NCBI GenBank assembly: GCA_947624685.1
Contig: CANQLJ010000008.1
Span: forward strand, 1-49,825
Source of the DNA: Candidatus Gastranaerophilales bacterium
Lineage (GTDB): Bacteria; Cyanobacteriota; Vampirovibrionia; Gastranaerophilales; Gastranaerophilaceae
Length of the DNA stretch: 49,825 nt
Direction of reading: 5' to 3'
Shown: positions 48,085 to 49,825 of the stretch, piece by piece
Layout: each line of letters begins with the position of its first letter
Position numbering within the stretch: position 1 is the first letter of the stretch
The notes under the pieces: generated by a model
What the model was told of the DNA's origin: nothing
Database searches by the model: none
The model's input: the letters and a program-made list of their open reading frames with translations, nothing else
Position numbers and translations under genes: made by a program

Positions 48085-48112
48085 TTGACTATGGCTTTTG
48101 ATTTGGTATGAT
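48085..48112 (+). promoter_or_regulatory. Promoter upstream of the tRNA-Phe repeat array
   Basis: TTGACT (48085-48090), a 16-base spacer and TATGAT (48107-48112), four bases after the dehydrogenase stop. It is the best promoter before the tRNA, so the array and the tRNA would be transcribed together. Confidence 0.6.
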
Positions 48113-48184
48113 GAAGTGGTCAAGCTTTGGACAGTTGGGCGTTGCGACGACTTGTTTGAAGCGACAATTGGACATTAATATCAT

Positions 48185-48586
48185 GCCGCGTTAGCTCCCC
48201 CAGTGGAGCCGATAGGCGAAACGGATAAAGAAACGTAGAGCTTGCTCTACCAACTGAATCCAATAACAATTGAATAAGAATAATTTTGCCGCGTTAGCCT
48301 AGGTGAGTGAAGCAGAGCCGCTAGAAAATATTTCACCAACTGAGCTAACAAAGCAAATGAAAATTGAATAGTTATGTTGAATGCCGCGTTAGCTCCCCAG
48401 TGGAGCCGATAGGCGAAACGGATAAAGAAACGTAGAGCTTGCTCTACCAACTGAATCCAATAACAATTGAATAAAATAATTAATGCCGCGTTAGCTCCCA
48501 AGTGGAGCCGATAGGCGGAACGGACAAAGAAACGTAGAGCTTGCTCTACCAACTGAATCCGATGAAAATTGAATAAAATAATTAAT
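48185..48586 (+). repeat. Tandem array of four tRNA-Phe-derived units of about 102 bp
   Basis: Units begin at 48185, 48288, 48383 and 48485 and run into the real tRNA at 48587 (steps 103, 95, 102, 102). Each starts with GCCGCGTTAGC, the tRNA 5' end. Units 1, 3 and 4 then hold a hairpin GCTCC/GGAGC and a roughly 40-base spacer. They continue with GTAGAGCTTGCTCTACCAAC, whose second half is the tRNA D-arm in reverse orientation. Unit 2 is divergent, with GTTAGC/GCTAAC and GGTGA/TCACC arms. None can fold as a complete tRNA. Confidence 0.88.
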
Positions 48587-48659
48587 GCCGCGTTAGCTCA
48601 GTTGGTAGAGCAAGGGACTGAAAATCCCTGTGTCCTTGGTTCGATTCCGAGACGCGGCA
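48587..48659 (+). tRNA. tRNA-Phe (anticodon GAA)
   Basis: 73 bases with a full cloverleaf: acceptor GCCGCGT/ACGCGGC, D-arm GCTC...GAGC, anticodon stem AGGGA/TCCCT with loop CTGAAAA (anticodon GAA), T-arm CTTGG-TTCGATT-CCGAG, and discriminator A. The CCA is not encoded. It is preceded by four partial copies of its own 5' part, and its 3' end recurs at 48951. Confidence 0.97.
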
Positions 48660-49040
48660 AATTTTTTTATATTCATGTGAAATTGGTAGCGAAGTCCGCA
48701 TCTCGGAACGAGGTCAAGCCTCGTCCTCAATATTTCATTTTGCTCCTGTGGGTATCTCGTTAAAACTCGCTTCGCTCACGCTGTCGCTCGTTTAACTCGA
48801 TTATCCTACGTACCCCAAGGGCATTTGTATTTTCTAATATTCGAGCTAAAGCTCTCATATTGAAAATACTGGCATCGCCTATCAATAGCTCCGGCTCGTC
48901 CTTTACCAGGACTCGCCTGGGATCCCTGGCTTGCGCATTTTCGGCAGAGTGAGACGCGGCAAATTTTTATATTCATGTAAAATTGGTTGCAAAGTCTGCG
49001 TCTCGCAACGAAATCAAGCCTCGTCCTCTTATGTTTTATT
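48649..49040. repeat. Direct repeat of the tRNA-Phe 3' end
   Basis: From GAGACGCGGCAAATTTTT (48649) about 80 bases, through ATATTCATGT and CAAGCCTCGTCCTC to 48728, are repeated at 48951-49028. The copies differ at several sites and are 302 bases apart. The second copy joins only the last bases of the tRNA, without the rest of the gene. Confidence 0.85.
48827..48869. repeat. 43-base imperfect palindrome
   Basis: Nested arms GTATTTTC/GAAAATAC, AATAT/ATATT and GAGCT/AGCTC with a 2-base centre. It lies inside the 302-base segment between the two copies of the tRNA 3' end. No reading frame. Confidence 0.65.
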
Positions 49041-49109: not shown

Positions 49110-49499
49110 TCATTGCGGGCTTGACCCGCAATCTCTAAAGTATGTAATCTTTTCTCTTTAATTTGTTCACTTTTCTTTTCAAAAAGCTAAAAATATTTTT
49201 TAGCAAATTGCTTTTGCAATTTGCCCGCTTTCTTTTCTTTGTTCAATTGCCCATCAAAGAAAAGAAAGCGGGCTCGCACCATGTGGGTTGCTAGGACGTG
49301 CACTAAATTCAAGCAGCGCCTCTCGGGGAACTCGCGCACGGTACGGATTACGCCCTGTCCGCCAAAGCTCTCGCTTTGCCGTCACGGGCTTCACACAGCT
49401 GGCTTGCTTGAAAATCTCGACTAACGTCGGATTTTCTACGCAATCTGCGCATACTTCATCCCTAATGCTCGCTATTGCTCACAAAGGGCTGAAGCAACC
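49110..49499. repeat. Dispersed modular repeat element, complete copy
   Basis: About 390 bases with: hairpin ATTGCGGG/CCCGCAAT (49112-49132), stem CAAATTGC/GCAATTTG (49204-49223), and a perfect 19-bp stem starting GCCCGCTTTC (49223-49241 / 49255-49273). A body ends in the part also found at 1-97. No credible protein is encoded. It looks like a non-autonomous dispersed repeat. Confidence 0.8.
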
Positions 49500-49629
49500 A
49501 ATGCCGCTCGACTTCGCTTGGCAAGAGCGCACAAGCGCTCTAGGCCTCGCTCGTCTCGGGTGCGCTCAGACAACCCTCTCGGGATGATGTTTCATTAAGT
49601 GCACATGGAAAAGTCCTATACGCCGTTCC

Positions 49630-49825
49630 GTCATTGCGGGCTTGACCCGCAATCTCTAAAGTATGTAATCCTCACATTTAGGGATGTTCACTTTTCTTTC
49701 TTTAAAAAAACCAAAAATGTTTTTTAAAAATTGATTTCATCAATTTGCCCGCTTTCTTTTCTTTGTTCAATCGCCCATCAAAGAAAAGAAAGCGGGCAGA
49801 AAGAAAAGAAAGAGGGCTCGCACCA
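49630..49825. repeat. Dispersed repeat element, copy cut by the window end
   Basis: The same modules in order: ATTGCGGG hairpin (49633-49653), stem AAATTGAT/ATCAATTT (49728-49746) and the 19-bp stem (49747-49765 / 49779-49797). It ends at CTCGCACCA, where the complete copy continues into its body. Between the copies (49500-49629) lies a short hairpin AGAGCG/CGCTCT and no gene. Confidence 0.8.

What the first reader, a model, noticed from the sequence alone, without database searches (positions are those of the whole stretch)
48085..48659. tRNA-Phe gene preceded by four tandem units built from its own 5' end and an inverted D-arm
Steps of 103, 95, 102 and 102 bases lead into the intact tRNA. 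Each unit has the tRNA 5' end on the plus strand, and three have the D-arm in reverse, so each unit is like two tRNA heads facing each other across a folded spacer. The only good promoter lies before the array, so the units should be cotranscribed with the tRNA. The best analogy known to me is the rtT repeats of the E. coli tyrT operon, but those derive from the tRNA 3' end. The units might be decoys for RNase P or aminoacylation, processing signals, small RNAs, or traces of repeated replication slippage.
Basis: partly seen in the sequence, partly recalled or inferred. Interest (0 to 1): 0.75.

Follow-up and report, generated by a model that had tools for sequence, protein, structure and literature searches.

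The report
Hairpin repeats duplicating tRNA gene ends
In a little-known order of gut-associated bacteria, many tRNA genes are flanked by short hairpin repeats built from copies of the tRNA's own nearest end plus a mirror-image copy, and this tRNA-Phe gene with four such units is one clear example; they look more like scars of DNA copying than like working decoys.

Summary
The array is real: heads at 48184, 48287, 48382 and 48484 lead, in steps of 103, 95, 102 and 102, to tRNA-Phe at 48586. All four units, not three, carry an inverted D-arm (15-17 nt exact).

It is not peculiar to tRNA-Phe. In seven genomes of Candidatus Gastranaerophilales, 43 of 181 tRNA genes have partial copies of themselves: 5' ends upstream in 26, 3' ends downstream in 25, wrong polarity in 3. 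A sister family gave 0 upstream head copies in 49 tRNAs. At tRNA-Phe, 17 of 21 same-genus relatives have one or two units. Orthologous empty and filled sites exist.

Best explanation: replication template switching at tRNA ends makes a fold-back plus a re-duplicated end, leaving the tRNA intact. Tandem duplication amplifies it, and a dispersed palindrome (ACTCTGCCGA...GAGAGG) and other cores spread among tRNA loci. A decoy or protective role is poorly supported: mirror units lie behind terminators, covariation is negligible, and natural leaders are predicted to disturb tRNA folding. RNA data could overturn this. SbcD loss and Y1 or reverse-transcriptase mobilisation are not supported. No precedent was found in the searched library; E. 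coli rtT is the nearest recalled relative.

The parts
48085..48112 (+). sigma-70-like promoter TTGACT-16-TATGAT with TG before the -10, upstream of the whole array
   Evidence: consensus match only; the same promoter precedes the first unit in same-genus relatives
48184..48286 (+). unit 1 (type A): tRNA head 48184-48197, core, GTAGAGC fold-back, inverted D-arm 48241-48257, leader copy
48287..48381 (+). unit 2 (type B): tRNA head 48287-48298, core, inverted D-arm 48335-48349, leader copy
48382..48483 (+). unit 3 (type A): tRNA head 48382-48395, inverted D-arm 48438-48454
48484..48585 (+). unit 4 (type A): tRNA head 48484-48497, inverted D-arm 48540-48556
48586..48660 (+). intact tRNA-Phe(gaa), no encoded CCA
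48698..48707 (-). inverted copy of the tRNA 3' end (GCATCTCGGA), start of the 3'-side unit
   Evidence: same arrangement in relatives
48941..48950 (-). end of the dispersed hairpin core C1 (ACTCTGCCGA on the minus strand)
48951..48962 (+). second copy of the tRNA 3' end (GAGACGCGGCAA), followed by a copy of the trailer
   Evidence: (families D2, D5)
48998..49007 (-). second inverted copy of the tRNA 3' end (GCGTCTCGCA)

Best explanation
The units are duplication scars of tRNA gene ends, not parts of a tRNA-Phe-specific device. While DNA is copied into a tRNA gene end, synthesis switches strand, copies the end back in inverted orientation, and returns to the flank, so that leader plus head (or tail plus trailer) is copied again. 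The result is [end +][core][end -][flank][intact tRNA]; only products that leave one intact tRNA survive, hence head copies upstream and tail copies downstream. Slippage or unequal crossing-over then makes tandem arrays. Hairpin cores, notably a 40-46-bp palindrome with constant ends (ACTCTGCCGA...GAGAGG), sit in the turn and are shared between different tRNA loci, so they move or are exchanged between loci. Shown here: duplicated ends, inverted arms, polarity, shared cores, empty and filled orthologous sites, variable duplication length, tandem expansion. Inferred: the strand-switch mechanism, how cores move, and the lack of a host function.
For: Own-head copies upstream of 26 and own-tail copies downstream of 25 of 181 tRNAs in 7 genomes; wrong polarity 3; p = 3e-12 for polarity. 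tRNA-swap control near zero. Units pair own head with own inverted D-arm at Phe, Arg, Lys, Leu, Pro; fold-back loops of only 2-4 nt at several. The 3' units mirror this with own inverted T-arm and own tail, behind terminators, with the terminator duplicated too. Duplicated leader+head varies by eye from about 23 to 47 bp at tRNA-Phe and includes a promoter at G028 tRNA-Ile: not a fixed transposase stagger. Orthologous sites behind one promoter are empty in two species, type B in one, type A in another. Core C1: 11 variants with constant ends and compensated stems; 10 of 11 hairpin-bearing copies in the genome lie within 700 nt of a tRNA. Template switching is documented to create hairpins and to keep their stems paired (PMC8794818) and to occur at quasipalindromes in E. 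coli (PMC7202029).
Against: Sequence-specific cores shared between tRNA loci and across genera cannot come from local template switching alone, so some transfer between loci is needed and its agent is unknown. Units persist at tRNA-Phe in 17 of 21 same-genus relatives, and a type-B-like core occurs in another family (G039), longer than neutral scars might be expected to last. No experiment or population data were available.
Confidence: 0.5

Rival explanations
1. A selfish, non-autonomous mobile hairpin (MITE- or REP-like) inserts specifically into tRNA gene ends and restores the gene by duplicating the end, like tRNA-targeting integrative elements but only about 60-70 bp long.
For: C1 has constant ends with different tRNA-derived flanks and is almost confined to tRNA neighbourhoods; cores are shared among different tRNAs within a genome.
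Against: No associated enzyme found: Y1/RAYT absent from G000, G008, G010 and G039; reverse transcriptase absent from G028, G039, G001 and G004, which have arrays. Duplication length is variable; inverted target arms are not a normal transposition product. No match in viral contigs.
Confidence: 0.22
2. A cis-acting RNA leader: the anti-D-arm next to the tRNA can pair with the tRNA D-arm (toehold CCAACTGA) and so regulates maturation or folding; local hairpins hold it in check.
For: 15-17 nt antisense to the tRNA 5' half within 110 nt upstream in several unit-bearing genes; natural leaders lower the predicted native fold (0.29 against 0.52 shuffled; 24 of 26 genes), not so for genes without units (0.57 against 0.58; p = 2e-7). 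The unit is retained in most of the genus.
Against: Empty orthologous sites. In G001 the tRNA has AGCTGG while both units keep the complement of AGTTGG, so complementarity was not maintained. Covariation in 1 of 16 and 0 of 8 pairs. 3' units behind terminators need another reason. Equilibrium folding ignores co-transcriptional folding.
Confidence: 0.15
3. Beneficial decoys or protection: the heads act as decoys for RNase P, synthetases or nucleases, or the inverted arms lock the decoy heads so that the tRNA folds.
For: Probable co-transcription; heads are paired in the predicted unit folds.
Against: The array lowers, not raises, predicted native tRNA pairing: 0.735 alone, 0.157 with array, 0.59 with shuffled array. 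Units lack the T-arm and acceptor 3' strand that RNase P and synthetases generally need (general knowledge).
Confidence: 0.05
4. att-site remnants left by repeated integration and excision of phages or islands at tRNA genes.
For: Partial tRNA copies are usually att sites (PMC9897764).
Against: Units of about 84-103 bp with inverted arms; 5' and 3' ends both affected; many different tRNAs in one genome; no match in viral contigs to the fold-back or the 3' junction.
Confidence: 0.05

Closest known systems
rtT repeats of the E. coli tyrT operon (from memory)
   Same: tandem repeats next to a tRNA gene that begin with a copy of one tRNA end; probably co-transcribed
   Different: rtT copies the 3' end only, in one operon, with longer units and no inverted tRNA arm; here both ends of many tRNAs, with fold-back hairpins and shared cores
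tRNA gene fragments from integrative elements (att sites; PMC9897764)
   Same: partial duplication of a tRNA gene leaving one intact copy
   Different: no integrated element, about 60-70 bp of inserted DNA, inverted copies, tandem arrays
Quasipalindrome template-switch mutations (PMC7202029, PMC8794818)
   Same: reverse-complement copies at stem-forming DNA; compensatory stem changes without selection on RNA
   Different: usually small local edits; here whole tRNA ends with flanks are re-duplicated and amplified, with dispersed cores in the turn
REP/RAYT, MITEs and Rickettsia palindromic elements (from memory)
   Same: short dispersed palindromes with variable stems
   Different: confined to tRNA ends; flanking arms match the local tRNA; no Y1 transposase in array-rich genomes G000, G010 and G039

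Membership tests
rtT-like tRNA-end repeats | tandem repeat beginning with a copy of the adjacent tRNA's end | tested here: met
rtT-like tRNA-end repeats | copy taken from the tRNA 3' end, downstream | tested here: inconclusive
   the array in question uses the 5' end upstream; one 3'-end copy also exists at 48951-48962
rtT-like tRNA-end repeats | repeat RNA or small peptide product | not testable with these tools
   unit spacing in relatives (101, 90, 93, 84-87) is not held to a multiple of 3, which argues against coding
att remnants of tRNA-targeting integrative elements | an integrated element or att core outside the array | tested here: not met
   no viral-contig match; no element between the copies
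REP/RAYT elements | Y1 transposase (PF01797) in the genome | tested here: not met
   absent in G000 and most array-bearing genomes
Retroelement (SINE-like) insertion | reverse transcriptase present in array-bearing genomes | tested here: not met
   RVT_1 present in G000 but absent in G028, G039, G001 and G004, which have arrays
Structured RNA family | helices supported by covariation or an Rfam match | tested here: not met
   Rfam matches only the tRNA above threshold; covariation in 1 of 16 and 0 of 8 pairs; C1 inner stems do vary in compensated fashion
Template-switch (quasipalindrome) product | reverse-complement copy of adjacent sequence with re-duplication of the flank | tested here: met
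Template-switch (quasipalindrome) product | switch-point microhomology and occurrence as a de novo mutation | not testable with these tools
   only one species-level genome per taxon; old events

The most novel reading that the evidence does not exclude
A new kind of minimal mobile DNA that lives only at tRNA gene ends: a 40-70-bp hairpin that enters the D-arm or T-arm, duplicates the tRNA end to keep its host alive, acquires locally matching inverted arms, and multiplies in tandem, moved by an unidentified host or phage enzyme.
Probability: 0.25. Interest if true: 0.8.

Novelty: new variant of a known kind. Interest (0 to 1): 0.6.

Why it matters
Partial tRNA copies are normally read as phage or island integration scars. 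Here a whole bacterial order shows a different route, symmetric at both tRNA ends, that yields hairpins, tandem arrays and one tRNA pseudogene fragment next to essential genes. It offers many natural replicates for studying how replication errors or tiny palindromic elements remodel tRNA loci, gives a case where compensated stems need not mean RNA function, and probably breaks metagenome assemblies at tRNA genes.

Tried and rejected
Loss of the palindrome nuclease SbcCD: SbcD is present in G000 and most of the genus, including array-rich genomes; SbcC was not tested. RAYT/Y1 mobilisation: absent from most array-bearing genomes. Reverse-transcriptase mobilisation: no association. Known RNA family: Rfam shows only tRNA; sub-threshold microRNA hits are chance hits on palindromes. 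Phage carriage: no match for the type A fold-back or the 3' Phe junction in viral contigs. 'Safety lock' idea (inverted arms shield the tRNA from decoy heads): in silico the inverted arms are what disturbs the tRNA. A coding array, suggested by the 101-aa minus-strand ORF at 48247-48552: spacing in relatives is not a multiple of 3. Literature searches found no description; the library is open-access only. In one search the cloverleaf probabilities were wrong (misaligned structure string) and were redone.

Full report
OBSERVATION. The array is present as described. The tRNA-Phe 5' end recurs at 48184, 48287, 48382 and 48484 before the intact gene at 48586-48660, giving steps of 103, 95, 102 and 102. 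Every unit, not three of four, has an inverted D-arm: 17 nt in units 1, 3 and 4, 15 nt in unit 2. Units 1, 3 and 4 (type A) share a core; unit 2 (type B) has another. The best promoter-like site lies at 48085-48112, directly behind the upstream gene.

WHERE IT COMES FROM. The window is one contig of a 2.0-Mb, 92-contig genome. An exact scan of 84,980 GTDB genomes for the type A fold-back GTAGAGC-N(0-8)-GCTCTACCAACTGA found 9 places. Six are named Candidatus Gastranaerophilales; the other three are two unnamed bacteria with the same architecture (one of them at a tRNA with a GGGCGTTTAGCTC head, matching tRNA-Val) and one archaeal record that lacks it. The viral collection had none.

IT IS GENERAL. 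For 181 tRNAs from seven genomes of the order I looked for exact matches of at least 11 nt between each tRNA and its own 600-nt flanks. Head copies lie upstream of 26 and downstream of 2; tail copies lie downstream of 25 and upstream of 1. In all, 43 tRNAs have at least one correctly polar copy. Replacing each tRNA by another of the same genome almost abolishes the signal. Array-rich genomes: G000 10 of 35, G010 9 of 30, G028 12 of 22, G039 5 of 12; G045 1 of 28 and G033 2 of 27, the latter in clusters of similar tRNAs. In 49 tRNAs of a different family of the same class there were no upstream head copies, and the tail hits fell in clustered tRNAs. G039 tRNA-Phe has five upstream and three downstream copies; G039 tRNA-Arg(tct) has four upstream. 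Contig ends often fall inside arrays, so counts are minimal.

ANATOMY. A 5' unit reads: own leader, own head (about 11-26 nt), core, own D-arm inverted (or the next stem folded back with a 2-4-nt loop), spacer. It is then followed by leader and intact tRNA. A 3' unit is the mirror: tail, trailer, own T-arm inverted, core, tail, trailer. In G039 tRNA-Lys and tRNA-Phe and G028 tRNA-Leu the 3' units lie behind intrinsic terminators, and the terminator is duplicated as well. Cores are shared between different tRNA loci. C1 has constant ends and 11 variants of its inner stem; of 13 exact ACTCTGCCGA sites in G000, 11 carry the hairpin, and 10 of these lie within 700 nt of a tRNA (my reading of the coordinates). 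Type A core elements occur at tRNA-Phe and at G028 tRNA-Thr; another core is shared by G039 tRNA-Lys and tRNA-Arg.

EMPTY AND FILLED SITES. Seventeen of 21 same-genus relatives whose tRNA-Phe locus was recovered have one or two units; four do not (counted by eye). Among species with the same promoter before tRNA-Phe, G008 and G021 are empty, G016 has one type B unit and G019 one type A unit; G018 has two type A units. The filled sites differ from the empty ones by roughly 64-70 nt of new sequence plus a duplication of leader and head whose length I read as 23 to 47 bp in different species. G028 tRNA-Ile units even duplicate their promoter and contain tRNA positions 1-26, C1, then positions 31-41. 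Variable length argues against a fixed-stagger transposase.

RNA-LEVEL TESTS. Single units fold more stably than shuffles (z -1.2 to -3.5), as inverted repeats must. RNAalifold finds negligible covariation for type A (1 of 16 pairs) and type B (0 of 8). Rfam knows only the tRNA. Predicted native pairing of tRNA-Phe falls from 0.735 alone to 0.157 with the array; a shuffled array gives 0.59. Over 177 tRNAs, the natural 110-nt leader of unit-bearing genes lowers predicted native pairing (0.29 against 0.52 shuffled; 24 of 26), whereas genes without units show no such effect (0.57 against 0.58; Mann-Whitney p = 2e-7). The cause at tRNA-Phe is the inverted D-arm, which can pair with the tRNA D-arm. 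These are equilibrium predictions; co-transcriptional folding may differ. In G001 the tRNA D-loop changed (AGCTGG) but both units keep the old complement, which argues against strict selection for pairing.

AGENTS TESTED. SbcD is present, so loss of that palindrome nuclease is not the cause. Y1 transposases and reverse transcriptases do not track the arrays.

MECHANISM. The pattern - enter the tRNA end, turn, come back inverted, restart in the flank - is what replication template switching produces. That process is documented to create hairpins and preserve their pairing (PMC8794818) and to act at quasipalindromes in E. coli (PMC7202029). tRNA genes are dense in short inverted repeats, and only products that leave an intact gene survive, which explains the polarity. 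Tandem expansion follows from the direct repeats. What this does not explain is the sharing of sequence-specific cores between loci; some movement or ectopic exchange must be added, and a tiny tRNA-confined mobile palindrome remains a serious rival. A cis-antisense regulatory role cannot be excluded without RNA data.

VERDICT. The decoy and processing readings are not supported; the slippage reading is the closest. The general phenomenon was not found in the open-access library searched and is more interesting than the single array.

Noticed in passing
G000:C49 (L045), upstream of tRNA-Arg(tct): A truncated 42-nt pseudo-tRNA (TGCGTCCGTAGCTCAGCTGGATAGAGCATCTGCCTTCTAAGC) lies between a unit and the intact gene; it equals the functional tRNA-Arg allele of G010 (L126), not G000's own, suggesting allele replacement at this locus.
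   Followed up: partly
48235-48250, 48432-48447, 48534-48549: On the minus strand each type A unit forms a terminator-like hairpin (GTAGAGCAAGCTCTAC followed by GTTTCTTT); it might stop antisense transcription toward the promoter.
   Followed up: no
49111-49825: Large palindromic intergenic repeats (CATTGCGGGCTTGACCCGCAATCTC... twice; AAAGAAAAGAAAGCGGGC inverted repeats twice): nested palindromes appear common in this genome.
   Followed up: no
48587-48670: tRNA-Phe encodes no CCA and runs directly into AATTTTTTT; many tRNAs of this genus do the same, while several relatives encode CCA and have a separate terminator.
   Followed up: no
ends of contigs C24, C38, C45, C51, C62 of G000 and of several relatives: Assembly contigs often break at a tRNA gene, so array sizes and numbers are probably underestimated.
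   Followed up: no
leaders of many tRNAs, e.g. 48563-48575: An AT-rich motif like TGAAAATTGAATA sits shortly before the tRNA start at many different tRNAs with units, and at some without; its role is unknown.
   Followed up: partly
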